Source of the DNA: Bacteroidales bacterium
GTDB taxonomy: Bacteria; Bacteroidota; Bacteroidia; Bacteroidales; Marinilabiliaceae
Direction of reading: 5' to 3'
NCBI GenBank assembly: GCA_024401365.1
Contig: JAKSLE010000003.1
Coordinates: 1-64,000 of the forward strand
DNA length: 64,000 nt
A model generated the notes under the pieces. The model was not told where the DNA came from and made no database searches. It was given only the letters and a program-made list of their open reading frames with translations. Both the position numbers and the translations under genes were made by a program. The stretch's first letter is position 1. Every line of letters starts with the position of its first letter. Positions 5,305 to 49,261 of the stretch are shown here, in pieces.

Positions 5305-6721
5305 TAGACGTCAAGTTCCAATAATCCCTATAAATCATTAAAGAACGCCAAAGGAGGTCGGCAATCTGGTCGGCACCTCGGCGAGTAAAATGTATATAAT
5401 CAGCTGCTGCCCAAGCCGGCTGATGGTCGGCCCAAACCTTCATAGAATTTTTGCCACCCATAGCTCGGTACATATCCCAATATATAGCACCCGACTCCAA
5501 GGTAACGCGTTGCATCTCCTCTATGAGCGGTTCGAGGTGGGGATTAGTCTGAAGTTCTCCGTTGACCTTTATATCGGTATCGGCGGGACCTACGACCAAT
5601 ATAACGGCATCCTTGCAAGCTGCCTGTAGGTGTTTGATTTGTCGTGCGAGGCCCTTGCCATACTTTTCGATACGTGTACTATCCTTCATAAGAGGGAGGG
5701 CGTTGCCTCCGAATTCCAGTATTATGAGGCGAGTATTAAGTTCGTTGAGCATGTAGCTCATTTCGGCGCGTTGGATACGGGTGAAGAAAGTCCCATCGCT
5801 ACCTCGCATAGGGATATTAGTAACAGTAACGCCCGTGTCGGCATCGATATATATACCCAAGATATCGGAGGTACCCGACAAATCCATTTGGACGCGCTTG
5901 GTTGTTCGTTTGAGGCGCCAAGAGAGCGTTTGGATATTATCGTTTTTAGGCAGGCACTGCTCGTTGCCATTCATTCGGGCGCTAAGGATATCGATATTAG
6001 AAGCAAATAATTTTACATGTTTGAAGCCATCTACTCGGTGGGCGTTGATGACGAGGGAGATAGGGTCGCTGGTAGTATTGATGTGAGCGAACTGAGCCAT
6101 AGCTCCATACCCCTTATGGCTAGCGCGTTGGCCAAGCATGCCGCCAGCGGTAAAAGAAGTAAGGGTATCGCTAAGCGACTGAGATACAGACAAGGCGCCT
6201 ACATTCTGGACGAGAGGCAAGAGGCCTGGGCCGCCTCCGCCGTACTCCTTTTGGAGGAGGGCGCGTAGGTATCCTGAGATACGGTCACCCTCTATCTGTG
6301 AGTCGCCGTAGTGTATTATGTGTACCCTTTGAGGGTAGTTGTTGCTCGCAGTTTTTAGATTTTCCAAGCTTTCGAAGAGAGGGTTCAAGATAGCGGTACA
6401 AGTATCGCCGCCAGGGAAATGCAGACGCGCGTTATTCTCGCGCATAAAAGAGAAGTAGAAGTCGAGCGTATCCGAGAGGTTAGCCTTATCCACGTTGACA
6501 GAATCCGTCAGTGAAGCAGAGAGATCCATATCCTTAGCGGATTCATTGAGGAGTTCCTCGGCGGAAATATTTTTTTCTTCAGAGTGTTCGAAGAGAGACA
6601 GGGAAGGTATACGCAGTTCTACTATGCCCATAGAAACTGTCTGTCCGCCCCATAAAAAGCAGATAACACCCAAAGAAAAGAGGATGCCAGCGAGGAATAA
6701 GAGTATTCTATTAGGTCTCAT
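5285..6721 (-). CDS. SGNH/GDSL-family hydrolase, probable O-acetyltransferase partner of the MBOAT protein
   Basis: 478 residues from the second ATG (MRPNRILLFLAG). The first ATG at 6733 overlaps a possible -7 box, so the shorter start is preferred. An N-terminal membrane anchor (about residues 5-26) places the rest in the periplasm. SGNH blocks are visible: block I HYGDSQ at about 138-142 with the nucleophilic Ser, the GGN block in FGGNA, and DYIHFT near the end carrying the Asp-His pair. Such enzymes hydrolyse or transfer acetyl groups, and the overlap with the MBOAT gene suggests the two work together. Residues about 120-130 are encoded by an antisense copy of the dispersed TTGCTCGCA repeat described separately. 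Confidence 0.82.
   Translation of the reverse strand: MRPNRILLFLAGILFSLGVICFLWGGQTVSMGIVELRIPSLSLFEHSEEKNISAEELLNESAKDMDLSASLTDSVNVDKANLSDTLDFYFSFMRENNARLHFPGGDTCTAILNPLFESLENLKTASNNYPQRVHIIHYGDSQIEGDRISGYLRALLQKEYGGGGPGLLPLVQNVGALSVSQSLSDTLTSFTAGGMLGQRASHKGYGAMAQFAHINTTSDPISLVINAHRVDGFKHVKLFASNIDILSARMNGNEQCLPKNDNIQTLSWRLKRTTKRVQMDLSGTSDILGIYIDADTGVTVTNIPMRGSDGTFFTRIQRAEMSYMLNELNTRLIILEFGGNALPLMKDSTRIEKYGKGLARQIKHLQAACKDAVILVVGPADTDIKVNGELQTNPHLEPLIEEMQRVTLESGAIYWDMYRAMGGKNSMKVWADHQPAWAAADYIHFTRRGADQIADLLWRSLMIYRDYWNLTSNVGENN
6333..6363 (+). repeat. TTGCTCGCA dispersed repeat, copy inside the SGNH hydrolase gene
   Basis: 31 bases match the intergenic copy at 13265-13295 at 28 positions. The repeat reads on the plus strand, antisense to the gene, and is translated in frame as part of residues 120-130, directly before the GDS catalytic block. 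Confidence 0.8.
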
Positions 6722-6803
6722 ATCAGAGTGCAAATATACTACAACGGATGAGATTTTGCTAAATTCTTAGGTGGATAGATACAATATAATAAATAATTAT
6801 TCT

Positions 6804-6811
6804 TACTTTTG
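6804..6811 (+). promoter_or_regulatory. Possible -7 box (TACTTTTG) for the Ig-repeat surface protein
   Basis: Matches the Bacteroides TAnnTTTG consensus 27 bases before the ATG. No convincing -33 TTTG lies at the right distance. On the opposite strand CAAATATA at 6731-6738 could be the -7 box of the divergent SGNH gene. Confidence 0.45.
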
Positions 6812-6838
6812 TCCCTTACTATTGAAACTTAGAAGGTT

Positions 6839-9457
6839 ATGAAGAATAGAAATATATTTGTTTTGCTATTGAGTCTAATAGCAATTGTAGGGGCTAAGGC
6901 ACAAGATTTAGCGGTCAATGAGACCAATTTTTCCAAGGCATTGTGTGATGCTTTGAAGGACTATGCTACAGGAGGAGTCATTGTGTCTGACAATGTAAAA
7001 TATGTCAACGAGTTGGAGATAGTTGGTTCGGGTCCAACAAGTGAGATTTCGATGAAAGGAGCTGAGTTGCTTCCATATCTACAGAAGATTACCCTGAAGA
7101 ATTTGAAGTACTATGGTGATCTTTCTATGATAGAGTCGTTGATTTCGTTGGAACTAGACAATGCTAAGTTGGGCAATATTGTAGTAGGCGGATATTTCAG
7201 AGACTTTACAGCTAGGAACAATTCCACATTTACAGATATTATTGTTGATGAATCCAATGGTCCTTGTGGAGAATTGGGAAAGATTACCTTGATGAATTTG
7301 GGTAGTGATTTCACAAGATATGCTCCTACACTTCTAGGACTACAGGAAAGTGGCGACAGATATGTTGATTTGGAGATTGTTTCTTGTAGCGGTTTGACAT
7401 ACGTAGATGCAAGTAAGGCGCATACTGTCATGTTTGAAGATGTTCCAAAGTTGGAGAGAATCAAGTGGGATTACGGATGGGGTCTTGATGCTTTTAAAGC
7501 TTCTTCACTCAGTCGCTTTCTTGGTATTCCATGCGAAAATGATGGCAGCGAAAAGCCAGTGATAGGAACCGAAATGTTGCCAGTGTATGGTTCTGACAGC
7601 GGCCCTGTTACCTCTGAGGTTAATTTTGCTGTGCCAGACAAGAGCACTCCGATAGATTTGGCAAGTTATGGTCTGGAAGGAAGCAAGGTAATGCTTGATG
7701 GCTCATGTACAAGTTACGCGTCGGTATCAGGCAATAATATAGTCATTGACTGGGGCAGCAAGACGGCGGTAGATGTAACATATAAGTATTACTGTTTCAG
7801 TGGTGCTTTGACATATATGACAGTTGTGCTCCACGTGAACATTGGTGACACGAAGAATAATCCAAAGCCATTCTTTGCTAGCAGCCCTGAACCTGTGGAC
7901 ACTGAGGCTCCAGTAATTAAGGTAGGAGACAAGGTGTTGGGTGCTACTGCTAAATTTGACAAGAATGTGACACTGTCGATCACTGACAACGAGGGAGTTG
8001 CGTCTGTTACAATCAACAGTGTAGAGATGCAGGCGCCTTATGAGATTACGAAAGAAGGAACATTCACCGTTGTAGTTAAGGATGCTGCTGGCAATAAGAC
8101 AGAGACCAAGATTACAATTAAGTATCCAGATACAGTTGCTCCAGTTGTCAAGGTGGGAGACAAGACGGTGGGAGCTACGGCGACATTTGATGCTGACGTT
8201 ACATTGAGCATTATAGACAATGTTAAAGTTACATCAGTTACAGTCAACGGAAAGGCGAAGTCGGAGCCATACACACTCTCTGGAGAGGGTACATATACGG
8301 TAGTAGCAGAAGATGCTGCTGGCAACAAGACAGAGACCAAGATTACTATCAAGTATCCAGATACAGTTGCGCCTACTATCAAGCTTGACGGCAAGGATGT
8401 AGCTGCTAAGTACGAGAAGGGTGGCTTTAACTTGACTATTACTGATAATATTAAGGTAACATCAGTGAATTTGAATGGAAAAGAATTCAAATCGCCATAC
8501 ACTATACCTGATGTTAACGGTACGTACTATGTAGTAGCTATGGATGCTGCTGGCAACAAGGCTGAAGTTGAGTTTATTATAGAGCATCCAGTAGACAAAG
8601 AGAAGCCAGAGATTAAGTTGCCTGGTGGTGTTTCGACAGCAACATACGGTAATGGCGGATTCAATTTGACCATTACAGACAATGAGGGTATTGCATCTGT
8701 AACTATTAATGGTAAGCCATTTAATCCTCCATACACTATTCCTGACGAGGATGGTTCGTACGAGATTATTGTAAAGGATGAGGCAGGTAATCAAGCCAGT
8801 GTTACAGTTGTGGTTGACCACAGTCTAGTAGAGCCAGAACCAGAGCCAGATACTGAGAAGCCAGTTATCAAGATCGGCGATTTAGTATTAGGTACTACAC
8901 ACGACCTTGAAGGTGGTGCGGTATTGACTATTGTGGACAATGTAGGTGTAGCATCTGTTACGATTAATGGCAGTGCGGTTTCTGCACCTTACACTATAGA
9001 AGACGAGAACGGTGTGTATACTGTAGTAGCTAAGGATGCTGCAGGCAATACGACGCAGGTAGTGATTACGGTTAAGAAACCAGAGGTTGAGCCTGTGGAT
9101 CCGGTAGACCCAGTAGATCCAGTAGACCCGGTAGATCCTGTTGACCCGGTAGATCCTGTTGATCCTATAGACCCAGTAGACCCAGTTGATCCTATACTTC
9201 CTCCTGTTAAGCCTAGCATTGATCCTACCAGTGTTCAGACCAAGGTGTTCAGAAGAGTTGTTACTGACGAGTTTGTTGGCATTGAGTACATTGCTGATGG
9301 AGACTGTGAGGTAGTAGTTAGAGACCTGAAGGGTGCGGTAGTAGGAACTAAGAGTGAGAAGGTTGACGACGTGGTATATAGAGTTGCGCTTCCAAAGGGA
9401 GATTACAAGATTGACTTTGGCTCTAAGTTCAAGGCTATACCAGTTACCATAGAATAA
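6839..9457 (+). CDS. Secreted surface protein with leucine-rich-like N-terminus, five Ig-like repeats and a PVD linker
   Basis: I do not recognise a specific function. The 872-residue protein begins with a signal peptide (MKNRNIFVLLLSLIAIVGAKAQ). Residues about 40-230 look like a degenerate leucine-rich or beta-helical region. From about 353 to 747 come five tandem Ig-like (bacterial HYR/Ig type) repeats of about 75-80 residues. Each starts like DTEAPVIKVGDKVLG and carries TITDNEGVASVTING and KDAAGNKTE-like strands. They are followed by eleven Pro-(Val/Ile)-Asp units and an approximately 80-residue C-terminal beta domain that resembles a sorting or anchoring domain. Adhesion or matrix function is an inference from this build. 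Thioredoxin starts 22 bases downstream. Confidence 0.8.
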   Translation: MKNRNIFVLLLSLIAIVGAKAQDLAVNETNFSKALCDALKDYATGGVIVSDNVKYVNELEIVGSGPTSEISMKGAELLPYLQKITLKNLKYYGDLSMIESLISLELDNAKLGNIVVGGYFRDFTARNNSTFTDIIVDESNGPCGELGKITLMNLGSDFTRYAPTLLGLQESGDRYVDLEIVSCSGLTYVDASKAHTVMFEDVPKLERIKWDYGWGLDAFKASSLSRFLGIPCENDGSEKPVIGTEMLPVYGSDSGPVTSEVNFAVPDKSTPIDLASYGLEGSKVMLDGSCTSYASVSGNNIVIDWGSKTAVDVTYKYYCFSGALTYMTVVLHVNIGDTKNNPKPFFASSPEPVDTEAPVIKVGDKVLGATAKFDKNVTLSITDNEGVASVTINSVEMQAPYEITKEGTFTVVVKDAAGNKTETKITIKYPDTVAPVVKVGDKTVGATATFDADVTLSIIDNVKVTSVTVNGKAKSEPYTLSGEGTYTVVAEDAAGNKTETKITIKYPDTVAPTIKLDGKDVAAKYEKGGFNLTITDNIKVTSVNLNGKEFKSPYTIPDVNGTYYVVAMDAAGNKAEVEFIIEHPVDKEKPEIKLPGGVSTATYGNGGFNLTITDNEGIASVTINGKPFNPPYTIPDEDGSYEIIVKDEAGNQASVTVVVDHSLVEPEPEPDTEKPVIKIGDLVLGTTHDLEGGAVLTIVDNVGVASVTINGSAVSAPYTIEDENGVYTVVAKDAAGNTTQVVITVKKPEVEPVDPVDPVDPVDPVDPVDPVDPVDPIDPVDPVDPILPPVKPSIDPTSVQTKVFRRVVTDEFVGIEYIADGDCEVVVRDLKGAVVGTKSEKVDDVVYRVALPKGDYKIDFGSKFKAIPVTIE
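9092..9193 (+). repeat. Tandem 9-base coding repeat (PVD linker)
   Basis: Eleven consecutive units encode Pro-Val-Asp, the ninth being Pro-Ile-Asp. Codons vary between units (ccg/cca/cct, gta/gtt, gac/gat), so the array is not a recent exact slippage product. It forms a stiff acidic linker between the Ig-like repeats and the C-terminal domain. Confidence 0.9.
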
Positions 9458-9479
9458 CAACCTAATACCATAATATAAT

Positions 9480-9794
9480 ATGTTAGAGATAACAGATCAG
9501 AATTTTCAGGCAGAAGTATTAGATGCCAAGGGAGTAGTGCTAGTAGACTTTTGGGCTGTCTGGTGTGGACCTTGCAGGGCTTTGGCTCCATACGTAGAGC
9601 AGATAGCAGAGGAGTATGCCGGCAAGGTGAAAGTTGGCAAGCTTGACACAGAAGCCAATCCTGACACTGCTGCTCAGATGGGAGTCATGGCTATACCAAC
9701 GTTACTATTCTTCAAGAATGGACAGGTTAGGCAGAAGATGACAGGTATGGTATCGAAGTCGAAGATAGCGCAGACGTTGGACACGTTATTATAG
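9480..9794 (+). CDS. trxA: Thioredoxin
   Basis: Small cytoplasmic dithiol-disulfide oxidoreductase of 104 residues, the normal length. The active site WCGPC holds Cys29 and Cys32. The cis-proline loop is seen in MAIPTLLFFKNG. No signal peptide is present, which separates it from the periplasmic thioredoxin-like proteins common in Bacteroidales. It begins 22 bases after the surface protein gene and may be read through from it. A hairpin with a T-run follows. Confidence 0.93.
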   Translation: MLEITDQNFQAEVLDAKGVVLVDFWAVWCGPCRALAPYVEQIAEEYAGKVKVGKLDTEANPDTAAQMGVMAIPTLLFFKNGQVRQKMTGMVSKSKIAQTLDTLL

Positions 9795-9821
9795 GCGGAG
9801 ACGACATATAGACGAAATAAG

Positions 9822-9849
9822 GGGGGAGGCGAAAGTCTTCCCTTTTTTT
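9822..9849 (+). terminator. Terminator after trxA
   Basis: An imperfect G-rich/C-rich hairpin (GGGAGGC against GTCTTCCC with a GAAA loop) is followed by seven T. Confidence 0.7.
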
Positions 9850-9902
9850 GTTGAGCTATAAGCAGTTGCGCGGAGGACTTTTATGATTTTTTAATAGGAT
9901 AA

Positions 9903-9934
9903 TTTGGTTTTGGATGATAAAACCACTATCTTTG
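9903..9934 (+). promoter_or_regulatory. Promoter of the rplM-rpsI-rpsB-tsf block
   Basis: TTTG at 9903-9906, a 20-base spacer, then TATCTTTG at 9927-9934. This is a full match to the Bacteroides -33/-7 consensus. Transcription should start near 9941. Confidence 0.8.
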
Positions 9935-9940
9935 CGCTCG

Positions 9941-10172
9941 ATTATTATCCGTTCTTGTGGACAAATGCTTGAGATATAGCGTTTTGTGGGGTTGATGGCG
10001 ATATGGTCATAAGGCACGAAGCCCTACGAACGATGCACTATATAGCAGGTGTGAGTTCACACAATTTGTGAGAAGGGTGAGAGCTGAGATTTGAGGCGTG
10101 CTTTCCAATTTGGCTGAGAGTCGCAGTAATTATCCGAAATAATTAATTAAAGTTGGTCTAAAATAAAAGACT
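9941..10172 (+). promoter_or_regulatory. Long 5' leader of rplM
   Basis: About 230 bases lie between the predicted transcription start and the rplM start codon without any gene. Several short self-complementary stretches are present, for example GTGTGAGTTCACAC around 10050. Ribosomal protein operons often autoregulate through such leaders. Whether this one does is inference, and I could not fold it. Confidence 0.4.
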
Positions 10173-10628
10173 GTGAATACATTAAGTTACAAAACAGTAT
10201 CCGCTAACAAGGAGACCGTAAAGAAGGAATGGGTCCTTGTTGACGCTCAGGATGTAGTTTTGGGTCGTCTTGCTTCAGCAGTGGCTAAGATCCTCCGTGG
10301 CAAGAACAAGCCTAACTTCACTCCTCATGTAGATTGTGGTGATAATGTTATCATTATCAACGCTGACAAGGTTAAGTTGACAGGTGATAAGCTCAACAGC
10401 CGAGTACTTTTCACTTATTCTGGCTACCCAGGTGGTCGTCATGATAAGACAGTTGCAGAGTTGCTTGCAAAGAATCCAGCACGTATGGTAGAGCGTACAA
10501 TTAAGGGTATGCTTCCAAAGAATCGTCTTGGTGCGCAGCTTTTCCGCAATTTGAAGGTATATGCTGGTGCAGAGCATAATCAGGAGGCTCAACAGCCTAA
10601 GAAGTTGGATATCAACGCTATAATCTAA
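10173..10628 (+). CDS. rplM: 50S ribosomal protein L13
   Basis: L13 binds 23S rRNA early in assembly of the large subunit. 151 residues. The start is GTG at 10173, which yields the usual Bacteroidales N-terminus (NTLSYKTVSANKETV). The first in-frame ATG is far inside the conserved domain. Family landmarks are WVLVDAQDVVLGRLAS and YSGYPGGRHDKTVAELL. rpsI follows after 7 bases, the standard L13-S9 pair. Confidence 0.97.
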   Translation: MNTLSYKTVSANKETVKKEWVLVDAQDVVLGRLASAVAKILRGKNKPNFTPHVDCGDNVIIINADKVKLTGDKLNSRVLFTYSGYPGGRHDKTVAELLAKNPARMVERTIKGMLPKNRLGAQLFRNLKVYAGAEHNQEAQQPKKLDINAII

Positions 10629-10635
10629 TTAGAAG

Positions 10636-11022
10636 ATGGAAGTTACAAACGCAATCGGACGTCGCAAGGCAGCAGTTGCTCGCGTATACGTCAGCGCTGG
10701 TAAGGGTCAGATCGTAATCAACAAGCGCGACCTCGCTACTTATTTCCCAGACGCTATTCTCCAATTTATTGTAAAGCAGCCATTGGCTACACTTGGCGTT
10801 GCAGAGAACTATGATATCAAGGTAAACCTCAATGGTGGTGGTATCAAGGGTCAGGCAGAGGCACTTCGCCTTGCTATTTCTCGTGCGCTCGTGAAGATCG
10901 ATGCTGAGAACAAGCCAGCTTTGAAGGCGCAGGGCTTCATGACACGCGATTCACGTGTTGTAGAGCGTAAGAAGCCAGGACGTCCAAAGGCACGCAAGAG
11001 ATTCCAGTTCAGCAAGCGTTAA
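10636..11022 (+). CDS. rpsI: 30S ribosomal protein S9
   Basis: 128 residues. S9 sits in the head of the small subunit and its basic tail reaches the P-site tRNA. The family pattern AIGRRKAAVARVYV opens the protein, and it ends with the basic tail GRPKARKRFQFSKR whose final Lys-Arg is characteristic. It is cotranscribed with rplM. Confidence 0.97.
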   Translation: MEVTNAIGRRKAAVARVYVSAGKGQIVINKRDLATYFPDAILQFIVKQPLATLGVAENYDIKVNLNGGGIKGQAEALRLAISRALVKIDAENKPALKAQGFMTRDSRVVERKKPGRPKARKRFQFSKR

Positions 11023-11063
11023 TCTTTTGCATTATTATTTATTCAAATTAAGTTTAGTATCTA

Positions 11064-11098
11064 AACCGACAAGATGCCAAAAGACCTACTTGTTGGTT
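11064..11098 (+). promoter_or_regulatory. Hairpin in the rpsB leader
   Basis: AACCGACAAG (11064-11073) pairs with CTTGTTGGTT (11089-11098), ten positions with one G-T pair and a 15-base loop. It ends 22 bases before the rpsB ATG with no T-run, so a translational control element or processing site is more likely than a terminator. Confidence 0.5.
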
Positions 11099-11120
11099 GC
11101 TTAAAACAGAACGTAAACAA

Positions 11121-11912
11121 ATGTCTAGAACAAATTTTGACGAACTCTTGGAGGCAGGTTGCCATTTTGGTCACCTTACACGTAAGTGGAATCCAGCTAT
11201 GAAGCCATATATCTTCATGGAGAAGAATGGCATCCACATTATTGACCTCCACAAGACAGTGGCTAAGATCGACGAGGCTGCAGAGGCACTTAAGCAAATT
11301 GTAAAGAGCGGACGTAAGGTGCTTTTCGTAGCGACTAAGAAGCAGGCACGTGATATCATCGCTGAGAAGGTAGGCGCTGTAAACATGCCATTCGTAGTAG
11401 AGCGTTGGCCAGGTGGTATGTTGACCAACTTCCCTACCATCCGTAAGGCTGTCAAGAAGATGGGTTCATTGGACAAGTTGATCAATGATCCTGTATATAT
11501 GAGTCTTTCAAAGCGCGAGCGTCTTCAGATCACACGTCAGCGTGAGAAGCTCAACAAGACATTAGGTTCAATTGCGGACCTTACACGTCTTCCAGCAGCT
11601 ATGTTTGTATTTGACACATGCAAGGAGCACATTGCGATTAAGGAGGCACAGCGCCTTAATATTCCTGTATTTGGTGTAGTAGATACAAACGCTAACCCTA
11701 ACGACGTAGACTACGTTATCCCAGCTAACGATGACGCTTCAAAGTCGATCGAGATTATCACAAGCATTATGTGCCAGGCAATCCGTGAGGGTTGGGACGA
11801 GCGCAAGGCAGAGAAGCTCGACGAGCCAGAAGCTAAGGAGGCAAAGGAGGAGAAGAAAGCTCCACGTGCTAAGAAGGGCGAGGCTAAGGCTGAGAAGGCA
11901 ACAGAAGAGTAA
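11121..11912 (+). CDS. rpsB: 30S ribosomal protein S2
   Basis: 263 residues from the ATG giving SRTNFDELLEAGCHFGHLTR, the conserved S2 opening. An in-frame start 24 bases earlier would add eight residues that overlap the leader hairpin and is rejected. Landmarks include RKWNPAMKPYIF, VERWPGGMLTNF and the VDTNANPNDVDYVIPANDDA block. The last 35 or so residues are a Lys/Glu/Ala-rich tail (EAKEAKEEKKAPRAKKG), a lineage extension. The rpsB-tsf order is near universal in bacteria. Confidence 0.97.
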   Translation: MSRTNFDELLEAGCHFGHLTRKWNPAMKPYIFMEKNGIHIIDLHKTVAKIDEAAEALKQIVKSGRKVLFVATKKQARDIIAEKVGAVNMPFVVERWPGGMLTNFPTIRKAVKKMGSLDKLINDPVYMSLSKRERLQITRQREKLNKTLGSIADLTRLPAAMFVFDTCKEHIAIKEAQRLNIPVFGVVDTNANPNDVDYVIPANDDASKSIEIITSIMCQAIREGWDERKAEKLDEPEAKEAKEEKKAPRAKKGEAKAEKATEE

Positions 11913-11936
11913 TATTCTTCTTTGACAAAGAAACGA

Positions 11937-13262: not shown

Positions 13263-13295
13263 GAGAGTAGTTGTTGCTCGCAGTTTTTTTATTTT
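13263..13295 (+). repeat. TTGCTCGCA dispersed repeat, intergenic copy A
   Basis: Starts GAGAGTAGTTG, has the core TTGCTCGCAG followed by a T-run, and ends ATTTT. It is almost identical over 32 bases to copy B at 13318, 22 bases further on. The 120 bases before it are G-rich with very little C on this strand (fragments such as GGGTAGT and GAGAGT). Together with that stretch it fills the spacer between tsf and the cobalamin riboswitch. Confidence 0.85.
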
Positions 13296-13317: not shown

Positions 13318-13349
13318 GAGAGTAGTTGTTGCTCGCAATTTTTTTATTT
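13318..13349 (+). repeat. TTGCTCGCA dispersed repeat, intergenic copy B
   Basis: Same orientation as copy A. It differs from A inside the shared part only at the base after TTGCTCGCA (A in place of G). About 120 bases without recognisable features follow before the riboswitch promoter. Confidence 0.85.
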
Positions 13350-13471: not shown

Positions 13472-13502
13472 TTGGCAAGAATCAAAATATTGCTGAAATT
13501 TG
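13472..13502 (+). promoter_or_regulatory. Probable promoter of the cobalamin uptake operon
   Basis: TTGG at 13472-13475, a 19-base spacer and GAAATTTG at 13495-13502 resemble the -33/-7 consensus with one deviation in each box. The implied start of transcription (about 13509) coincides with the first pairing strand of the riboswitch, which supports it. Confidence 0.55.
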
Positions 13503-13509
13503 CGATGGC

Positions 13510-13694
13510 ATACAGTTCTCTATGGGGGAAACTTATAGGGATTAAAAGGGAATCAGGTGCAAGACCTGGACAGTACCCGCTGCTGTGAGTTCTTTCATCC
13601 TTTGAAGAAGGGGATGGTCTTATGTGCAATAAGTCACTGGCTGAAAAGTTGGGAAGACGCGCATAGGTAGGACGAGTCAGAAGACCTGCTGTAT
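13510..13694 (+). promoter_or_regulatory. Cobalamin riboswitch
   Basis: The outer stem P1 is ATACAG (13510-13515) with CTGTAT (13689-13694). Inside are the conserved blocks of the adenosylcobalamin aptamer: GGGAATCAGGTGCAAG-like and CAGTACCCGCTGCTGTGA segments, then the B12 box region (AGTCACTGG, then GGGAAGACG) and GACGAGTCAGAAGACCTGC. Binding of cobalamin is expected to shut down expression of the downstream BtuB-like receptor gene, here probably by blocking translation. I see only a weak hairpin (CCGTG/CACGG near 13770) before the start codon. Confidence 0.92.
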
Positions 13695-13857
13695 CGACAT
13701 AATGTTTTACTTGCGGGAATACGAGTAGTAGCAATAGAATGCTCAATATTGAAAGGTTGAGATTTTGCCGTGTGTCTATGTGGCACGGTAAGGTAGTTGA
13801 TTGTGTCATATCCCGTTAGTAAATATTATTGTATTTGCTGACGTTTTTTTGTGCTTG

Positions 13858-24624: not shown

Positions 24625-24716
24625 TCCTATATTGCTTTTCAGCAAAGATAATTCATTTATTTGGGAATACACCATACGGGGAGCACTTGAAGAGAGACCT
24701 TTCTGCATAGAGAGAA

Positions 24717-24746
24717 GGTAGTTGTTGCTCGCAATTTTTTACTTTT
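24717..24746 (+). repeat. TTGCTCGCA dispersed repeat, copy upstream of polA
   Basis: Has the 5' part GGTAGTTG, the core TTGCTCGCAATTTTTT and the end ACTTTT. It lies about 90 bases before the polA start codon, between polA and metK. Confidence 0.8.
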
Positions 24747-24778: not shown

Positions 24779-24823
24779 GCTGATATAAGAGAGATATAAG
24801 GTTGCTCGCAATTTTTTTATTTA
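24779..24823 (+). repeat. 45-base long form of the TTGCTCGCA repeat
   Basis: Identical over 45 bases to 37450-37494. Both copies begin GCTGATATAAGAG, run through AGATATAAGG and end in the core TTGCTCGCAATTTTTTT with ATTTA. The preceding bases GTATATG and GTATAGG also nearly match. Confidence 0.9.
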
Positions 24824-26143: not shown

Positions 26144-26286
26144 CTTGGAGAAATTTAATCTGTTATTTAACTGAAAAAATAGATGGGAAAAGAGAATGAT
26201 AGGGACTCAACGTGATGCGTTTTAGCACTTTTTTATAGTGGTTGCAATTAGCAAATCCTTCCACTCTTTTCTCCTCTTTGTGGGTG

Positions 26287-32985: not shown

Positions 32986-34401
32986 ATGATACTGATATAT
33001 TTGATAGCTGCATTGATAATAGGTACTATACAATTTGTGATACGCAACAGGCGTATGACGCATATAGTAGCTACAATGACGATAGCGCTTCAGTGGATGT
33101 TGACGGCGTATGCTACATTTAATAGAGACGAGATAGACCTGACCTTCTTCAAGTATGATGGGTTGGCCATATTGATGTTATGGGCGCTGACCATTATCTC
33201 GACGGTAGTGATGCTACACTCTACGCGATATATAGAGACGCCATTGCACCTAGACCTCAACAGGATGACGGCGCAATATTACGGTGCTATGCAATTTCTC
33301 ATCATGGCTCTATCGGCGGCATGTCTGTCGAACCACATAGCCATGACCTGGATATTTGTTGAGATTACCACGCTCTCGGCGTCGGCGCTTATATTTTACA
33401 GGCGAGGCAAGGGAGAGATTGAGGCCACCTGGAAATATGTTTTTGCGTGTTCAATAAGCCTTGTATTTGTGTATGTAGGCATATTGTTCCTGACGATAGC
33501 CATGCAGCCTGGCATGCAAGAGTCGCTTGATTTTGCATCACTAGAGAAGAATGCATCGGCGATGGACCAGTTCTGGCTCAAGATGGCGATGATCTTTATT
33601 TTTGTAGGTTACTCAGCCAAGATGTCGCTTGTACCTATGTTTACGGCAGGTATAGATGCCAAGGACGAGGCGCCTACTCCAGCTGCGGCGATGTTGTCGA
33701 GCGTACTGATGAACACCGGTTTTGTAGCATTTTACAGATTTTACAGAGTCATACTCTGTTCCGGTGCGTATGAATGGGGAAGAGGAGTTGTATTGGCGGT
33801 AGCGCTTATAAGTCTCTTTGTAGCTGCAGTATACCTTATAAGAGTACACAATGTAAAGCGACTCTTTGCATACTCCAGTGTTGAGCATATGGCGGTAGCC
33901 ATGTTAGGTTTAGCTGCCGGTGGTGTAGGCGTTGTGTACTGCATACTACATGTAGTAATACATTCATTTGTAAAATCATCCATTTTCCTCCATATAAGCA
34001 ATCTATACAGGGTATACGGCACCAAGCAGTTGAGCAATATTGGCAGATACATGCGATATTCGTGGACGGGAACGATAATAGTGATATTAGCTACGATATC
34101 CATTACGGCTATGCCGCCATCGGGCTTATTCTTCACGGAATTGATGATATTCAAGTCGATGATAGATGTACACTGGTGGGTATGGATGGTACTAGCTATG
34201 TTGTTGCTCACAGTTATAGTCTGGGCGATAAGCAGAGATATGTTTGCGTTGATATTCCAGAAAGAAGAAGAGCCTGCGGCTACGGCGCCTAAGAAGATAC
34301 ACATGCCTGCGCTTGAGATGGCGGGGCAGTTGTTATTGCTCTTCATTGCTATATGGTTGGGTATTCATACGCCATCCTATGTGTTGGACCTATTATCCTG
34401 A
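32986..34401 (+). CDS. Ehr-type complex, second antiporter-like subunit (HyfF/NuoN-like)
   Basis: 471 residues, about 13-14 helices. The family residues are Glu in MTWIFVEITTLSASAL, Lys in GYSAKMSLVPMFTAG followed by KDEAPTPAAAMLSS, and Lys in HVVIHSFVKSSIFLHISN. With the first subunit this gives two antiporter-like modules, as in hydrogenase 4 of E. coli, against one in hydrogenase 3. It lies 33 bases after the HyfE-like gene and 7 bases before the large subunit gene. Confidence 0.87.
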   Translation: MILIYLIAALIIGTIQFVIRNRRMTHIVATMTIALQWMLTAYATFNRDEIDLTFFKYDGLAILMLWALTIISTVVMLHSTRYIETPLHLDLNRMTAQYYGAMQFLIMALSAACLSNHIAMTWIFVEITTLSASALIFYRRGKGEIEATWKYVFACSISLVFVYVGILFLTIAMQPGMQESLDFASLEKNASAMDQFWLKMAMIFIFVGYSAKMSLVPMFTAGIDAKDEAPTPAAAMLSSVLMNTGFVAFYRFYRVILCSGAYEWGRGVVLAVALISLFVAAVYLIRVHNVKRLFAYSSVEHMAVAMLGLAAGGVGVVYCILHVVIHSFVKSSIFLHISNLYRVYGTKQLSNIGRYMRYSWTGTIIVILATISITAMPPSGLFFTELMIFKSMIDVHWWVWMVLAMLLLTVIVWAISRDMFALIFQKEEEPAATAPKKIHMPALEMAGQLLLLFIAIWLGIHTPSYVLDLLS

Positions 34402-37449: not shown

Positions 37450-37494
37450 GCTGATATAAGAGAGATATAAGGTTGCTCGCAATTTTTTTATTTA
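37450..37494 (+). repeat. 45-base long form of the TTGCTCGCA repeat, second copy
   Basis: Identical to 24779-24823. It lies in the divergent spacer between the editing protein and the GNAT gene and is followed by an AG-rich stretch. Confidence 0.9.
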
Positions 37495-42397: not shown

Positions 42398-43936
42398 ATG
42401 CTAGTCAAAACATTTGGTTCCGCAGTGAGCGGAATAGAAGCGTACACTATTACTATAGAAGTAAGTGTAACGCAAGGAATGAAATTCTTCATGGTTGGCC
42501 TTCCAGACAATGCGGTCAAGGAGAGTCAGCAGCGCATTGAGACGGCCATTAAAGGCAATGGTTTTCATTGGCCTGGGAAGAAGATAGTAATTAACATGGC
42601 ACCTGCGGACATTCGTAAGGAAGGGTCTGCGTATGATTTACCCCTTGCATTAGGTATACTAGCAGCCTCGGAGCAGATACCTGCGGACAATCTGCATAAG
42701 TATATTATTATGGGAGAGATGTCGCTTGACGGAGGGCTCATGCCCATCAGAGGAGTATTGCCCATTGCGATAAAGGCCAAAGAAGAGGGGTATGAGGGGA
42801 TAATTATTCCCATGACCAATGCCCGAGAAGCCGCAATAGTAGAAGGTCTTAAGGTTTATGGAGCCAATAATCTAAATGAAGTTGTAGCATTTCTGCGAGA
42901 CGGGGGAGGGATAGAGCAAGTTGTAGTAGACACTGCAGAAGAATTTAAGAAAAACAATATACTCAGCGACCTTGATTTTTCCGAAGTCAAGGGGCAAGAA
43001 AGTGTAAAGAGAGCGTTAGAGATAGCTGCTGCTGGGGGGCATAATATATTATTGATAGGTGCTCCAGGTTCGGGAAAGAGTATGATGGCCAAGCGCATGA
43101 GCAGTATATTGCCGCCATTGACGCAAGAAGAGGCGTTAGAGACGACGAAGATCCACTCTGTAGCCGGCAAGGTAAATTCGGGAGGGTCGCTGATAACCAA
43201 GAGGCCCTTCAGGAGTCCGCACCACACTATATCGGACGTAGCATTAGTGGGAGGAGGTGCGTATCCCCAGCCAGGTGAGATATCGTTGGCGCACAATGGG
43301 TTGCTCTATCTTGACGAGTTGCCAGAATTTAAGCGTTCGGTATTGGAAGTTATGCGTCAGCCATTGGAAGACAGGACGATAAGTATTTCGAGGTCGAAAT
43401 TTACTGTTGACTATCCAGCAAGTTTTATGCTAGTAGCCAGTATGAATCCCTGTCCATGTGGTTATTATGGGCATCCAGAAAAAGAGTGTGTCTGTCCTCC
43501 TGGTGCTGTAAGGAAATATATGGGTAAGATATCTGGACCCTTGCTAGACAGGATAGACTTGCATGTGCAAGTTGTCCCTGTACCATTCGCCAAGTTGACC
43601 GAGCAACCCACCGGAGAGAGCAGTCAAGATATACGCAAGAGGGTAGTAGCTGCCAGGGAAGTACAGAATGAGAGGTATAAAGAATTGGAAGGAATACATT
43701 GCAATGCCCAGATGACGCCTAAACTGCTGACGCGATATGCTCAGCCAGACGAGCAAGGGAGCAAGATGCTTAAGATGGCGATGGAGAAGCTTGGGTTATC
43801 GGCCAGGGCCTATGACAGGATACTCAGGGTAGCCAGGACGATAGCTGATTTGGAGCAAGAAGAAAGCGTACTGTCGAAGCATATAGCAGAAGCTATACAA
43901 TACAGGTCGTTGGACAGGGATACCTGGGGTATATAG
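42398..43936 (+). CDS. comM: YifB/ComM-family Mg chelatase-like AAA+ ATPase
   Basis: 512 residues. The N-terminal ChlI-like S5/Lon fold (FFMVGLPDNAVKESQQRIE and INMAPADIRKEGSAYDLP) precedes a Mg-chelatase-type AAA+ core with Walker A GAPGSGKSM, the HHTISDVALVGGG loop and Walker B GLLYLDELPEF. A Cys-rich loop (NPCPCGYYGHPEKECVCPP) is typical. The C-terminal helical domain ends the protein. In naturally competent bacteria ComM is a helicase that promotes branch migration during transformation. Competence in this organism is not shown here. Confidence 0.9.
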   Translation: MLVKTFGSAVSGIEAYTITIEVSVTQGMKFFMVGLPDNAVKESQQRIETAIKGNGFHWPGKKIVINMAPADIRKEGSAYDLPLALGILAASEQIPADNLHKYIIMGEMSLDGGLMPIRGVLPIAIKAKEEGYEGIIIPMTNAREAAIVEGLKVYGANNLNEVVAFLRDGGGIEQVVVDTAEEFKKNNILSDLDFSEVKGQESVKRALEIAAAGGHNILLIGAPGSGKSMMAKRMSSILPPLTQEEALETTKIHSVAGKVNSGGSLITKRPFRSPHHTISDVALVGGGAYPQPGEISLAHNGLLYLDELPEFKRSVLEVMRQPLEDRTISISRSKFTVDYPASFMLVASMNPCPCGYYGHPEKECVCPPGAVRKYMGKISGPLLDRIDLHVQVVPVPFAKLTEQPTGESSQDIRKRVVAAREVQNERYKELEGIHCNAQMTPKLLTRYAQPDEQGSKMLKMAMEKLGLSARAYDRILRVARTIADLEQEESVLSKHIAEAIQYRSLDRDTWGI

Positions 43937-43944
43937 AAAGGAAA

Positions 43945-43975
43945 AACGGAGAAGATGCAGAAGCACTTCTCCGTT
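43945..43975. terminator. Shared terminator between comM and atpC
   Basis: AACGGAGAAG pairs perfectly with CTTCTCCGTT over an 11-base loop. An A-run on the left provides T on the minus strand, so it probably serves atpC. The plus-strand tail is weaker. Confidence 0.8.
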
Positions 43976-44000
43976 TAGCTTTATAATATCCGTTAAAGGA

Positions 44001-44246
44001 TTAGTTCAGAAGGATAGACACCTTATTGCTTGAGCATTCGAGATAGCCGCGAGAGCATTCGAACGACATCTCCTGACCATTAGGTAGCTGGACACGTATC
44101 ACGCCATTAGTGAGGGCGCTGATGATAGGAGCGTGTCCGGTCAATACGGTGAATCGTCCACGTGCGCCAGGAACCTCGACGAGAGAAATCTTATCACCGA
44201 AGAGGACCTTTTCTGGACTTACTATTTCGAGATATAAATCTTTCAT
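44001..44246 (-). CDS. atpC: F1Fo ATP synthase epsilon subunit
   Basis: 81 residues, comprising only the N-terminal beta sandwich (LYLEIVSPEKVLFGDKISLV, GRFTVLTGHAPIISAL). The C-terminal helical hairpin found in the about 135-residue E. coli protein is absent, as in other Bacteroidota. That hairpin inhibits ATP hydrolysis, so this mode of control is probably missing. It follows atpD by 32 bases. Confidence 0.92.
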   Translation of the reverse strand: MKDLYLEIVSPEKVLFGDKISLVEVPGARGRFTVLTGHAPIISALTNGVIRVQLPNGQEMSFECSRGYLECSSNKVSILLN

Positions 44247-44278
44247 GACTCTACTGTTTTACGGATGAGAGAATCAGA

Positions 44279-45802
<1,524 letters not shown>

Positions 45803-45819
45803 TTATTGTTAGGATTTAT

Positions 45820-46794
45820 TTACCGGTCGCGCTTTACAAGCATATTCACGAAGTCGGCCATAAAACGTTTGCCTTCTGCTGAGATTTCCATTGCGCTCAG
45901 CATACGCATAGATTTATTGAGCAACTCGTCGATTTTTCGTCCGGTCTTTTCTTTTACGCCAATTTTGTTATATAGGTTCGTTACAGCGGCAATTTTTTCA
46001 CTTCTATCTGCATTTGTTTTTTCGAGCCACTGAACTAATTCCTTTTTCTGAGCTGAAGGGGCATCCTGGAGAGCTGTAATCAGGAGGAATGTTTTTTTGT
46101 TTTCGATGATGTCGCCACCAATAGGTTTACCGAACACCTTTTCGTCTCCGTAGACATCCAGGTAATCGTCTTGGAGTTGGAAAGCCAATCCGATGTTGAT
46201 GCCGAAATCGTATAGGGCGTTGATTTCGTTGACATTAGCGCCACCGATAAGGGCACCGATTTTGATACTAGCTGCCAAGAGGACTGCGGTTTTGAGTCGG
46301 ATCATCTCCAGGTATTGATCGACGGTGACGTTATCCTGAGACTCGAAGTCCATATCGTACTGTTGCCCCTCGCAAACCTCGGTAGCTGTCTGGCTGAAGG
46401 TGTCGAGGATGAGAGCTGCGGCTGGGCTATCGACGTCGGCTATCAGTTTATAAGCCTCGATGAGCATCTGGTCGCCGCTCAAGATTGCTGTATTAGCGTT
46501 CCACTTAGCATGTACGGTAGGTTGTCCTCGGCGTAGCATTGAGTTGTCCATCACGTCATCGTGCAAGAGGGTGAAGTTGTGGAACATCTCGAGAGCGAGG
46601 GCTGCGTTCTTGGCAGGCGAGTAGTCGTCCTTGAACAATGCGCAAGTAGCCACGCACATCAGAGGGCGCAAGCGTTTGCCGCCCAGAGAGAGGGAATATG
46701 TGATAGGAGTATATAGGTTACGAGGCTCCCTTTTCAGGTCGAGTTCTTTAACCCAATTATCAACATCTGTTCTTATTGTGTCCAGAGAAAGCAT
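45820..46794 (-). CDS. Polyprenyl diphosphate synthase
   Basis: 324 residues, trans-type prenyl chain synthase. The two Asp-rich motifs are present: first LLHDDVMDNSMLRRGQPT (DDxxD with the following RR) and second FQLQDDYLDVYGD. Other landmarks are GGKRLRPLMCV near the N-terminus and GKPIGGDIIENKKTFL. The residues before the first DDxxD (EMFHNFTLLHDD) set chain length. I cannot decide between farnesyl/geranylgeranyl and longer products such as the octaprenyl tail of menaquinone. Confidence 0.9.
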   Translation of the reverse strand: MLSLDTIRTDVDNWVKELDLKREPRNLYTPITYSLSLGGKRLRPLMCVATCALFKDDYSPAKNAALALEMFHNFTLLHDDVMDNSMLRRGQPTVHAKWNANTAILSGDQMLIEAYKLIADVDSPAAALILDTFSQTATEVCEGQQYDMDFESQDNVTVDQYLEMIRLKTAVLLAASIKIGALIGGANVNEINALYDFGINIGLAFQLQDDYLDVYGDEKVFGKPIGGDIIENKKTFLLITALQDAPSAQKKELVQWLEKTNADRSEKIAAVTNLYNKIGVKEKTGRKIDELLNKSMRMLSAMEISAEGKRFMADFVNMLVKRDR

Positions 46795-46821
46795 AGTCGG
46801 TATGTTTGATATACTTAGCGA

Positions 46822-47526
46822 TTATGAATTTTTACGAGCCTCTTCCAGAACTTTGTTCTTAGAGACCACTGCTATATATTCTTTCAGGTAGAAAGGTTCG
46901 AAGTAGGCGACGTCGGCGAAATCCTTGTTGTTGAATTTCTTTATAGCCAAAGGAGTCATGAACAGTGCTTTAGCTTCGGCATCGTCGATGAAAGAGGCAT
47001 TAGGGGAAGAGATGACCGCCTTACTTTTAGGGGCTCCGCTGCCACCCAATGCGACTTGGTGAGAAGAAAGGGTATCGGCGAAAGAAGATTCGTCGAGGAT
47101 TTTAGCCTCTGTTTCAGAGATATAATTGAAATTGCGGTCGATGATAGCGCAATATACCTCCATTCGTCGGGCATCTATCATTGGCAAGGCGTACTCTGCG
47201 GTGCTTTTAGTAAATATTTCCTGTGCTATGGTCTCGAGGGTAGGGATAGAGATCAATGGCACATCATTAGCGTAGCAGATGCCCTTTGCAGTAGAGGCAC
47301 CGATACGCAAACCTGTATAAGAACCTGGGCCTGCGCTGACGGCCACTGCATCCAAAGCCGAGTATGCGATACCTGCCTCGGACATCACGTTGTTGATAGC
47401 CGAAGTAAGTAAAGAAGCATGCTCGCCGGTGGTACTGACGATAGACGACAACACCTTCTCGTCGTTATTCAACGAGAGGGCTGCAGAGCAGATATTACCA
47501 GATGATTCTATACAAAGAATAGCCAT
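46822..47526 (-). CDS. tsaB: tRNA threonylcarbamoyladenosine synthase subunit TsaB
   Basis: 234 residues, actin-like fold. N-terminal ILCIESSGNICSAALS, then EHASLLTSAINNVM and VSAGPGSYTGLRIGAST, the family signature. TsaB is the inactive relative of TsaD and dimerises with it to transfer the threonylcarbamoyl group made by TsaC. With the TsaC-like gene at 41.3 kb, two of the four t6A genes are in this window, in separate transcription units. Confidence 0.93.
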   Translation of the reverse strand: MAILCIESSGNICSAALSLNNDEKVLSSIVSTTGEHASLLTSAINNVMSEAGIAYSALDAVAVSAGPGSYTGLRIGASTAKGICYANDVPLISIPTLETIAQEIFTKSTAEYALPMIDARRMEVYCAIIDRNFNYISETEAKILDESSFADTLSSHQVALGGSGAPKSKAVISSPNASFIDDAEAKALFMTPLAIKKFNNKDFADVAYFEPFYLKEYIAVVSKNKVLEEARKNS

Positions 47527-47547
47527 ATCTTGTCTTTGATATATTAT

Positions 47548-48066
47548 TTAGTCATCCTGGTTCATCTCGATGAGGAATCGGTAGGAAGAGAAAGGCAACT
47601 TATCTCCATCCACGATTATATTAGCCTGTCTATAGAAAGGCTCTCTCTCGTTGAGCTTACCTTGGATGAACTCCAGCAACTCCTCGTCGCTTTTATTCGC
47701 TAGCAGCGGGCGATTAGCCTTAGCAGGTGCGAGGCGTTTGCGCAATATTTCAGGTTCGACGTTTATGTAGATGACGGTACCGGACTCCTTCATGATGGCG
47801 ATATTTTCGTTGTTGCAAGGAGTACCTCCGCCTGTAGACACAATAACCTTATCCATCTGAGCTATTTTGCGAAGGAGTTTGGTTTCCTCTTTACGGAAAG
47901 CTGCCTCGCCCTTCTTCTCGAAGAAAGCGCTGATGGTGCAATTATGTTCCTGCTCGAAGACATTATCCATATCCAGATATGTCCAACCCATATCGCGAGC
48001 CACATATTTGCCAATGGTAGTTTTACCTGCTCCCATAAAACCTATGAGGTAGACTCTTGATACCAT
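47548..48066 (-). CDS. aroK: Shikimate kinase
   Basis: 172 residues. P-loop IGFMGAGKTTIGK near the start, then DMDNVFEQEHNCTISAFF (the shikimate-binding DxD region), VVSTGGGTPC-like motif (IVSTGGGTPCNNENI) and the LID with RPLLANKSDEELLEF. It phosphorylates shikimate on the way to aromatic amino acids. 21 bases separate it from tsaB downstream. Confidence 0.95.
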   Translation of the reverse strand: MVSRVYLIGFMGAGKTTIGKYVARDMGWTYLDMDNVFEQEHNCTISAFFEKKGEAAFRKEETKLLRKIAQMDKVIVSTGGGTPCNNENIAIMKESGTVIYINVEPEILRKRLAPAKANRPLLANKSDEELLEFIQGKLNEREPFYRQANIIVDGDKLPFSSYRFLIEMNQDD

Positions 48067-48099
48067 TACTAAAAGATTATTCTGTTGAGATTACCGTTA

Positions 48100-48354
48100 T
48101 TACTTGCTCTGTTCGGCTATAGCCTCGAGAGCTCTAGCCAATTGATCTGGGCAACTTGTGCCCTTCATGCCGCACTGGATTCCCTTCAATCGGCTGATGA
48201 CCTCTTGAGGGGTCATATCCTTTACCAATCGTCCGATACCCTGGAGGTTGCCGTTGCAACCTCCAAAGAACTGAGCACCTTTGACAACTCCATCTTCAAT
48301 ATCGATGAGAATTTCCTTGCTGCAAGTGCCCTCTGTCTGATATCTGTATTGCAT
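48100..48354 (-). CDS. TSCPD-domain (TIGR03905) small protein
   Basis: 84 residues. The full-length match is the TSCPD domain: YQTEGTCSKEILIDIEDGVV, FFGGCNGNLQGIGRLVKD, and the eponymous KGTSCPDQLARALE at the end. Three to four cysteines suggest metal or cluster binding. The same domain occurs fused to some vitamin B12-dependent ribonucleotide reductases, but the function of the stand-alone form is not established. Confidence 0.87.
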   Translation of the reverse strand: MQYRYQTEGTCSKEILIDIEDGVVKGAQFFGGCNGNLQGIGRLVKDMTPQEVISRLKGIQCGMKGTSCPDQLARALEAIAEQSK

Positions 48355-48373
48355 AATGTAATCTTCTTAAAAT

Positions 48374-49024
48374 TTATATTGATAAGCCTTTTTGCTGGGC
48401 TGCTTTAATAATCTCCTCTGTCAGGTAGTCGACGCCCTCCATTCTATCGTGCAGAAGCACTATACTATTAGGTTTGAGGCGTTTGACGACTCTTTTCAGT
48501 ACCTCTTCGCGGGGTTTGTCCATTGTGTCGAACGAGCGAACCGACCATCCCCACACCTTGTATTTCATTCTTGTGCAAGCGCTAGCCACGGTAGGGGTTG
48601 TGATGCCTAGAGGTGGGCGGAAGTCGGCAACAGGTATTCCAAGGTTTTCCACGGCTGCGTGGGCACGTTTCAGTTCGTCCATATACTTGCGGTGGATATA
48701 GAAATTGTGCCATGGGTTGTGGAAATAGGTATGGTTGCCTATTGTATGTCCGCGGCGGTGGACCTCCTTGACGATTTCTGGGTACTTGTCGACCTTTTCG
48801 CCGATCATGAAGAAAGTTGCTTTGACATTGTGCTTATCCAACACATCCAAAAGTTTAGGGGTATGGACAGGGTCGGGACCGTCGTCGTATGTAAGCAGTA
48901 TCTTATTGGAATCGGTGTTAGAGCATTTAGCCTCCAAGAACATTCCAGAATGTATATTACTACTTCCGTATGCTACTATTGCTAGAGCGAGAAGGGATAT
49001 TGCCAGTATAATTGTTATAGCCAT
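48374..49024 (-). CDS. Membrane-anchored polysaccharide deacetylase (NodB homology domain)
   Basis: 216 residues. One N-terminal membrane helix (about 2-20), then a carbohydrate esterase 4 domain. Motif 1 LTYDDGPDP carries the catalytic Asp and metal Asp, motif 2 GHTIGNHTYFH has the metal-binding histidines, and motif 3 FRPPLGITT and the later VLLHDRM (with the catalytic His) follow. Members remove N-acetyl groups from peptidoglycan or other polysaccharides. It is the first gene of a seven-gene minus-strand run with spacings of 19-38 bases. Confidence 0.88.
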   Translation of the reverse strand: MAITIILAISLLALAIVAYGSSNIHSGMFLEAKCSNTDSNKILLTYDDGPDPVHTPKLLDVLDKHNVKATFFMIGEKVDKYPEIVKEVHRRGHTIGNHTYFHNPWHNFYIHRKYMDELKRAHAAVENLGIPVADFRPPLGITTPTVASACTRMKYKVWGWSVRSFDTMDKPREEVLKRVVKRLKPNSIVLLHDRMEGVDYLTEEIIKAAQQKGLSI

Positions 49025-49173
49025 AATATAATGTTACAAAGCTATGTGAAATATAGAAACGCGTCTTGCCTTGTTAATCTTCAAAGATACATCTTTTATA
49101 TATAATGTAGTCATTTGTTGTTGATTTTTTTGTAACAAAAGATGATATGTTTTTTATGGGAAGAGGAGAGTTG

Positions 49174-49210
49174 GAGGGTAGCGAGAGGGTAGTGTGAGGG
49201 TAGTGTGAGG
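49174..49210 (+). repeat. G-rich 11-base tandem repeat
   Basis: Two exact units of GAGGGTAGTGT (49185-49195, 49196-49206), a preceding variant GAGGGTAGCGA and a trailing partial unit. It lies about 27 bases upstream of the TTGCTCGCA copy at 49237. Confidence 0.75.
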
Positions 49211-49236
49211 TATAAGGCTGGTTTAAGGGAGGTACC

Positions 49237-49261
49237 TTGTTGCTCGCAATTTTTTTATTTT
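49237..49261 (+). repeat. TTGCTCGCA dispersed repeat, copy upstream of the deacetylase gene
   Basis: Core TTGCTCGCAATTTTTTT preceded by TTG and followed by ATTTT. Plus-strand orientation as in all other copies. Confidence 0.85.

What the first reader, a model, noticed from the sequence alone, without database searches (positions are those of the whole stretch)
6333..49261. Dispersed short repeat family with core TTGCTCGCAATTTTTTT, all copies on one strand
At least seven convincing copies (6333, 13263, 13318, 24717, 24779, 37450, 49237) share TTGCTCGCA(A/G) plus a T-run. Five of the seven carry an upstream GTTG-type extension before the core, and most end in ATTT. All read on the plus strand whatever the direction of nearby genes. 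No terminal inverted repeats, target-site duplications or coding capacity are visible, so this is not a normal MITE or REP. Possible roles are a polar replication-linked motif, a small nonautonomous element inserting into one strand of the fork, or a protein-binding site.
Basis: partly seen in the sequence, partly recalled or inferred. Interest (0 to 1): 0.75.

Follow-up and report, generated by a model that had tools for sequence, protein, structure and literature searches.

The report
One-strand DNA repeat with orphan gene
A Bacteroidales genome carries about 150 copies of a short repeat made of 11-base units, typically ~10 kb apart and nearly always on the locally G-rich strand, and among 15 related genomes the four rich in this repeat are the only ones with a multi-copy gene of unknown family that sits downstream of it; repeat and gene are likely a small mobile DNA system inserted in one orientation relative to DNA replication, whose protein is predicted to bind the repeat.

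Summary
The window has 8 copies, all on +; the genome has 147 exact copies (38+109; reversed-pattern control 0). Each is an array of 11-bp words ([CG][AT][AG]+8 nt) followed by TTGCTCGCA[A/G] and a T-run. Strand is not fixed: it follows local GC skew (52 of 55 site clusters; 53 of 65 in a second species) and ignores gene direction (27 of 55). Spacing is over-regular, peaking at 6-14 kb. New: a ~170-aa basic protein family without a Pfam, NCBIfam or PHROG hit is encoded just downstream of such a site in 24 of 30 gene copies or fragments examined. Among 15 congeners it occurs in exactly the four genomes rich in sites. Gene plus site has moved between unrelated flanks. All window copies are solo sites. 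Best reading: a fork-oriented mobile system of unknown kind, some of whose sites are now under selection. Main rival: a chromosome-organising polar binding site. REP/RAYT, terminator and viral origin were tested and not supported.

The parts
6287..6363 (+). solo site, core at 6342, antisense inside called gene 5285-6721 (-)
   Evidence: 27.8 bits
13219..13295 (+). solo site, first of a tandem pair 55 bp apart, core at 13274
   Evidence: 51.5 bits
13296..13350 (+). solo site, second of the tandem pair, core at 13329
   Evidence: 45.2 bits
   Evidence: (26.8 bits)
24670..24746 (+). solo site, core at 24725, pair with the next 77 bp on
   Evidence: 39.3 bits
24747..24823 (+). solo site, core at 24802
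   Evidence: 63.2 bits
37418..37494 (+). solo site, core at 37473, between divergent called genes
   Evidence: 63.9 bits
49185..49261 (+). solo site, core at 49240, between two minus-strand called genes
   Evidence: 60.1 bits

Best explanation
The repeat is the dispersed, strand-polar site of a clade-specific orphan gene family, likely a small mobile element system whose ~170-aa basic protein is predicted to bind the 11-bp word array and whose copies would be inserted in one orientation relative to the replication fork. Shown here: the site is made of 11-bp words, a core and a T-run; its strand follows GC skew and not gene direction; spacing is over-regular; the gene lies downstream of a site in 24 of 30 copies or fragments examined and, among 15 congeners, occurs only in the four site-rich genomes; gene-plus-site units of about 0.7 kb sit between unrelated flanks; and a lone ~126-bp site copy sits in a fifth congener with mostly different flanks. 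Inferred: that the G-rich strand is the leading strand; that the protein binds the array and helps to mobilise gene-bearing and solo forms; that insertion is fork-directed, as known for Tn7/TnsE and IS200/IS605; and that the spacing comes from an immunity-like exclusion or from selection. Retention of the core inside orthologous genes suggests that at least some sites have since gained a selected role.
For: Strand versus gene-corrected skew 52 of 55 and 53 of 65; 25 of 27 neighbours closer than 9 kb co-oriented. Gaps of 6-14 kb 29 of 53 versus 16 expected and 30 of 57 versus 18. Orphan gene in G000, G013, G008, G010 (20, 26, 16, 10 matches) and in 0 of the other 11 congeners, the same four that are rich in sites. 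Site upstream on the same strand in 24 of 30. Non-orthologous near-identical units L281/L284 and L288/L292 share words (0.95, 0.77; random pairs 0.44, 95th percentile 0.61) but not flanks (0.39-0.43). Lone site copy in G001. Low dN/dS, about 0.06-0.18 in 10 pairs. Fork-directed insertion gives such polarity in Tn7 and IS200/IS605 (PMC5371812, passages).
Against: No known transposase or catalytic signature and no clear fold match. No terminal repeats or target duplications seen by eye in the compared units, no caught insertion, and no empty site found. Solo sites keep no part of the gene or of its 3' end, unlike ordinary internal-deletion derivatives, and their 5' edge is gradual. Core and phase are retained in two diverged in-gene orthologues, which neutral debris of a mobile element would not do. 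The four genomes may simply be one clade, so co-distribution is weaker than its p-value.
Confidence: 0.45

Rival explanations
1. A chromosome-organising system: the orphan protein is a nucleoid protein that would nucleate on the core and wrap or polymerise one way along the 11-bp words, marking replication direction about every 10 kb; the gene copies would be autoregulated paralogues.
For: Helical phasing and near-invariant core; over-regular spacing; skew polarity; retained cores in two diverged in-gene orthologues and a 33-nt, three-word, in-frame expansion; fixed distance from core to a promoter-like box in 16 of 18 gene-bearing copies.
Against: Present in 4 of 15 congeners only; 10-26 gene matches per genome and moved gene-plus-site units are odd for a housekeeping system; only 4 of the 10 syntenic spacers that have a site have it in both species.
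Confidence: 0.33
2. Strong gyrase sites: the core would be the cleavage site and the phased words the arm that wraps around gyrase, placed about once per supercoil domain.
For: One-sided ~11-bp phasing recalls the periodic flanks of the E. coli gyrase motif and BIME-2 as gyrase sites (PMC6379681, passages); spacing near 10 kb.
Against: A 9-bp invariant core, a dedicated co-distributed orphan gene and absence from 11 of 15 congeners are not expected, because gyrase is universal; no tie to transcription direction.
Confidence: 0.07
3. Transcription terminators or promoters.
For: T-run after the core; in 5 of 18 gene-bearing copies a TAnnTTTG box lies 23-24 nt after the core start, so the core could serve as a -33 box there.
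Against: Intergenic copies split ++36, -+31, --28, +-22 and regional gene direction agrees in 27 of 55; no consistent hairpin, 2 of 10 sites with z below -2.
Confidence: 0.04

Closest known systems
REP/REPIN elements with RAYT (TnpA-REP) genes
   Same: Many short dispersed, mostly intergenic sites, and a gene flanked by such a site.
   Different: Sites are not palindromic, are strand-polar and built of 11-bp words; the gene is multi-copy and unrelated to Y1 transposases; no Y1 hit in three of the four genomes.
Fork-directed transposons (Tn7 with TnsE; IS200/IS605)
   Same: Orientation follows replication direction (for these, PMC5371812 passages).
   Different: No recognisable transposase, no Tn7 or IS200 ends, far smaller solo form.
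AIMS, KOPS and Chi polar octamers
   Same: Strand-biased relative to replication.
   Different: Those are 8-bp motifs (AIMS: abstract start of PMC5993296; KOPS and Chi recalled); this one has a 9-bp core plus at least three phased words and a linked gene.
Strong gyrase sites (Mu SGS, BIME-2)
   Same: Helically phased flanking sequence (PMC6379681, passages).
   Different: Invariant core, one-sided array, clade restriction, linked orphan gene.
ParR/parC-type partition sites
   Same: Tandem ~11-bp units next to the gene of a possible binding protein (parC repeats recalled; one search gave listings only).
   Different: Dispersed over the chromosome by the hundred; no ParM or ParR relation found.
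Haemophilus DNA uptake sequences (recalled)
   Same: 9-bp core with phased AT-rich flank.
   Different: Much rarer, strand-biased, gene-linked; uptake not tested.

Membership tests
REP/RAYT | Y1 (HUH) transposase gene of RAYT type in the genome | tested here: not met
   PF01797 over cut-off in G000, G002, G003, G012; no match in G013, G008, G010, which are rich in sites.
REP/RAYT | Hairpin with GTAG/GTGG foot | tested here: not met
   2 of 10 sites fold better than shuffles at z below -2.
REP/RAYT | Dispersed multi-copy intergenic sites beside a cognate gene | tested here: met
   117 of 132 copies intergenic; 24 of 30 gene copies or fragments beside a site.
MITE | Both ends of an autonomous element retained, middle deleted | tested here: not met
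   Downstream of solo sites 1 of 126 short hits to gene-bearing units, control 4 of 126.
MITE | Terminal inverted repeats and target-site duplications | tested here: inconclusive
   None seen by eye in compared units; no empty site obtained.
IS200/IS605 | Y1 transposase | tested here: not met
   No match in three of the four site-rich genomes.
Fork-directed transposon (Tn7/TnsE type) | Orientation follows replication direction | tested here: inconclusive
   Strand follows GC skew, but no replication origin was mapped.
Fork-directed transposon (Tn7/TnsE type) | TnsA/B/C/E proteins and Tn7 ends | not tested
   No search run; the linked protein has no Pfam hit.
AIMS/KOPS/Chi | Motif is a simple octamer | tested here: not met
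   Conserved positions reach at least 33 bp upstream of a 9-bp core.
Intrinsic terminator | Stable hairpin before the T-run and orientation with the upstream gene | tested here: not met
Strong gyrase site | Gyrase binding and cleavage | not testable with these tools
   Needs EMSA or cleavage mapping.
ParR/parC | Ribbon-helix-helix ParR-like protein | tested here: inconclusive
   No Pfam hit and no clear fold match; a weak or missing match does not exclude a fold.
DNA uptake sequence | Promotes DNA uptake | not testable with these tools
   Needs a transformation assay.

The most novel reading that the evidence does not exclude
A sequence-written direction code on a bacterial chromosome: an orphan protein loads at an invariant core and extends one way along helically phased 11-bp words, so that every ~10 kb the DNA itself states which way the replication fork travels. 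The code spreads as mobile gene-plus-site units and is rewritten word by word, even inside genes in frame.
Probability: 0.3. Interest if true: 0.92.

Novelty: categorically new. Interest (0 to 1): 0.78.

Why it matters
Known polar chromosomal motifs are short octamers, and known fork-directed elements have recognisable transposases. This family joins a long, helically phased, degenerate array with strand polarity and ~10-kb spacing to an orphan gene with no relative in the libraries searched. It offers a concrete protein-site pair for testing either a new mode of fork-oriented mobility or a sequence-encoded chromosome landmark.

Tried and rejected

Papers. TTGCTCGCA: 120 papers, 10 listed, all of the listed ones on unrelated topics. 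Searches for Bacteroidales dispersed repeats with leading strand or GC skew (5 papers, none on this) and for Bacteroidales with RAYT, leading strand or orphan protein (0 papers). ParR/parC and target-immunity searches were seen as listings only. Passages only were read of PMC6379681, PMC6006769 and PMC5371812. These searches cover one open library; no wider claim of absence from print is made.

Full report
OBSERVATION. The 17-base core occurs 8 times in the window with up to 3 mismatches, all on +, against 0.28 expected. In the 3.05-Mb own genome there are 38 A-type and 109 G-type exact copies, with zero for the reversed pattern. A position-weight scan of four contigs (762 kb) gave 64 sites against 0 in the reversed sequence at thresholds 12-16, and 63 and 61 against 0 at 18 and 20.

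ANATOMY. Of the 147 exact copies, 138 were listed with places, 136 distinct ones were fetched and 132 had full flanks. Their anchored alignment shows that the site is more than the core. Upstream the sequence runs in 11-bp words that start with [CG][AT][AG]: 98% of copies at -11, 97% at -22, 80% at -33, 44% at -44, 34% at -55 and 30% at -66, against 13% far upstream. The commonest triplets are CTG at -22 and GAG at -11; the other 8 nt come from a loose vocabulary (ATATAAGG, GGTAGTGT, GTACCTTG and others). Then come TTGCTCGCA, A or G, five or more T, and usually ATTT. Tandem copies are mostly spaced by multiples of 11 (44, 55, 66, 77, 88); exceptions of 67, 89 and 93 bp occur. There is no consistent hairpin. 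Core variants TTCATCG[C/T]A and TTGGTCGTA occur with similar upstream words.

PLACEMENT. With a home-made gene caller, 117 of 132 copies are intergenic and 15 lie in genes (11 antisense, 4 sense); the intergenic ones fall in all four gene-orientation classes. Neighbouring sites are co-oriented in 60 of 83 pairs, and in 25 of 27 closer than 9 kb. Orientation follows GC skew: on contigs C1, C3, C23 and C34, 52 of 55 clusters lie on the G-rich strand by gene-corrected third-position skew within 2 kb (p=1.5e-12); at 5 and 10 kb it is 50 of 55; intergenic skew agrees in 47, 51 and 50 of 55; gene direction in 27, 29 and 33 of 55. Uncorrected skew agrees in 48 or 49 of 67. The oriented skew profile is flat for 12 kb on both sides, so sites follow the regional skew. 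Skew flips several times per contig; inversions carrying skew and sites together would explain this (inference). That the G-rich strand is the leading strand is the usual convention, not shown here.

SPACING. In G000, 29 of 53 gaps are 6-14 kb (16 expected from random intergenic placement, 0 of 2000 simulations as high) and 4 are under 4 kb (13.6 expected, 0 of 2000 as low). The coefficient of variation is less striking (P 0.03; 0.10 against uniform placement). In G013, 30 of 57 gaps are 6-14 kb against 18 expected (P 0.001) and 5 are under 4 kb against 17.

PHYLOGENY AND LINKED GENE. In 61 genomes the strict core pattern is frequent only in G000, G013, G008 and G010 (133, 93, 46, 34), with single hits in G003 and G020 that lack words by eye. 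The profile model, which scores a capped number of candidates per genome, adds one site in G001 and a weak hit in G051 without a core. The G001 site is a 126-bp stretch 92% identical to the G000 site in L075; beyond it the flanks differ. L075 and L135 share 662 bp at 79%, including an ORF. This ORF family has 20 matches in G000, 26 in G013, 16 in G008, 10 in G010 and none in the other 11 congeners; Fisher p=0.0007 ignoring shared ancestry. In a sample of 393 genomes of the order only the own genome matched; the other three site-rich genomes did not ring there and so were presumably not drawn. Of 30 gene copies or fragments inspected, 24 have a same-strand site 220-336 bp before the reference residue 1, which lies 56 residues after the likely start; one has a core 45 nt before it, inside its own reading frame; one has the site on the other strand; four have none within 900 bp. 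The full protein is ~167-188 aa. Of 18 gene-bearing copies, 11 have a TAnnTTTG box (Bacteroidetes -7 box, recalled) at +50/+51 of the core, 5 at +23/+24, one at +95 and one none. dN/dS is about 0.06-0.18 in the ten pairs tested. There is no Pfam, NCBIfam or PHROG hit; the PDB sequence search gave E 0.7 or worse; of 55 database homologues those with a name are called hypothetical protein. The AlphaFold model (pLDDT 82, pTM 0.70) has a helix, a beta-hairpin and a run of helices, without a clear fold match.

MOBILITY. The near-identical units L280, L281, L284 (L281/L284 homologous over ~717 bp, from about 94 bp before the core to 4 bp past the stop) and L285, L288, L292 share words above random pairs. 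In L281/L284 and L288/L292, both within G013, the flanks on both sides are unrelated. L285/L288 share the upstream flank and L280/L284 part of the downstream flank, so these look orthologous. In most of the more distant gene pairs the words are no more alike than in random sites, with exceptions (L296 pairs 0.64-0.75, L283/L297 0.82 with a shared upstream flank). Six of 132 copies with the intact core were scored gene-bearing; solo sites carry no trace of the gene part (1 of 126 short hits, control 4 of 126). Between G000 and G013, of 60 syntenic spacers, 4 have a site in both (3 on the same strand, 3 with a different core type), 2 only in G000 and 4 only in G013.

SELECTION. Of 15 in-gene matches, 3 had an orthologue in the fetched data and all 3 keep a core there on the same strand relative to the gene. 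One (a protein 98% identical, DNA polymerase I by recall) is uninformative. In the other two (73 and 78% protein identity) the core codons are kept, apart from the A/G position in one, while words and residues around change: 13 of 26 and 14 of 26 residues shared in the site window; same-residue codons identical 0.77 versus 0.52 and 0.79 versus 0.49 for the whole gene. One has a 33-nt, three-word, in-frame expansion. Two informative cases are few, but they argue that position, core and phase are maintained.

MECHANISM. The most economical reading is a mobile system of gene-bearing units and far more numerous solo sites, with a protein that would recognise the word array and copies placed in one orientation relative to the fork. 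Tn7/TnsE and IS200/IS605 show that fork-directed insertion yields such polarity (PMC5371812, passages). Missing are a catalytic signature, defined ends and an observed insertion. The rival, a chromosome-organising role, explains phasing, spacing and maintenance better, and limited distribution and mobility worse. The two may combine: mobile origin, later recruitment.

NOVELTY. The general plan of dispersed sites plus cognate gene is known from REP/RAYT (PMC6006769, passages), but two defining features were tested and not met. The protein family and the 11-bp word grammar match nothing in the libraries searched, hence the rating.

Noticed in passing
window 13496-13708 (+) and 26212-26270 (-): Cobalamin and SAM-II riboswitches.
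   Followed up: no
window 16431: A ninth TTGCTCGCA, followed by A instead of T, with a weak profile score (15.7 bits, E 0.001) inside a called gene.
   Followed up: partly
G013:C3 54029 and 54097, 73351 and 73430 (positions 34029, 34097, 53351, 53430 of the piece joined from L217-L219): Divergent pairs: a TTCATCG core on - and a TTGCTCG core on + about 70-80 bp apart, sharing the words between them.
   Followed up: no
G000 contigs C1 and C23; G013 contig C1: GC skew changes sign several times per contig, independent of gene direction, as if the chromosome were much rearranged.
   Followed up: partly
G013:C1 132456-132710 and 150499-150741: Two four-copy TTCATCG arrays with 77-89 bp spacing pointing at each other, 18 kb apart, with ordinary-looking genes between.
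   Followed up: partly
L057 (G000:C2 11372): A site lying inside the reading frame of a copy of the orphan gene, on the same strand.
   Followed up: no
L201 (G008), 1550 and 1643 on -: A tandem pair 93 bp apart, one of the few not in an 11-bp multiple.
   Followed up: no
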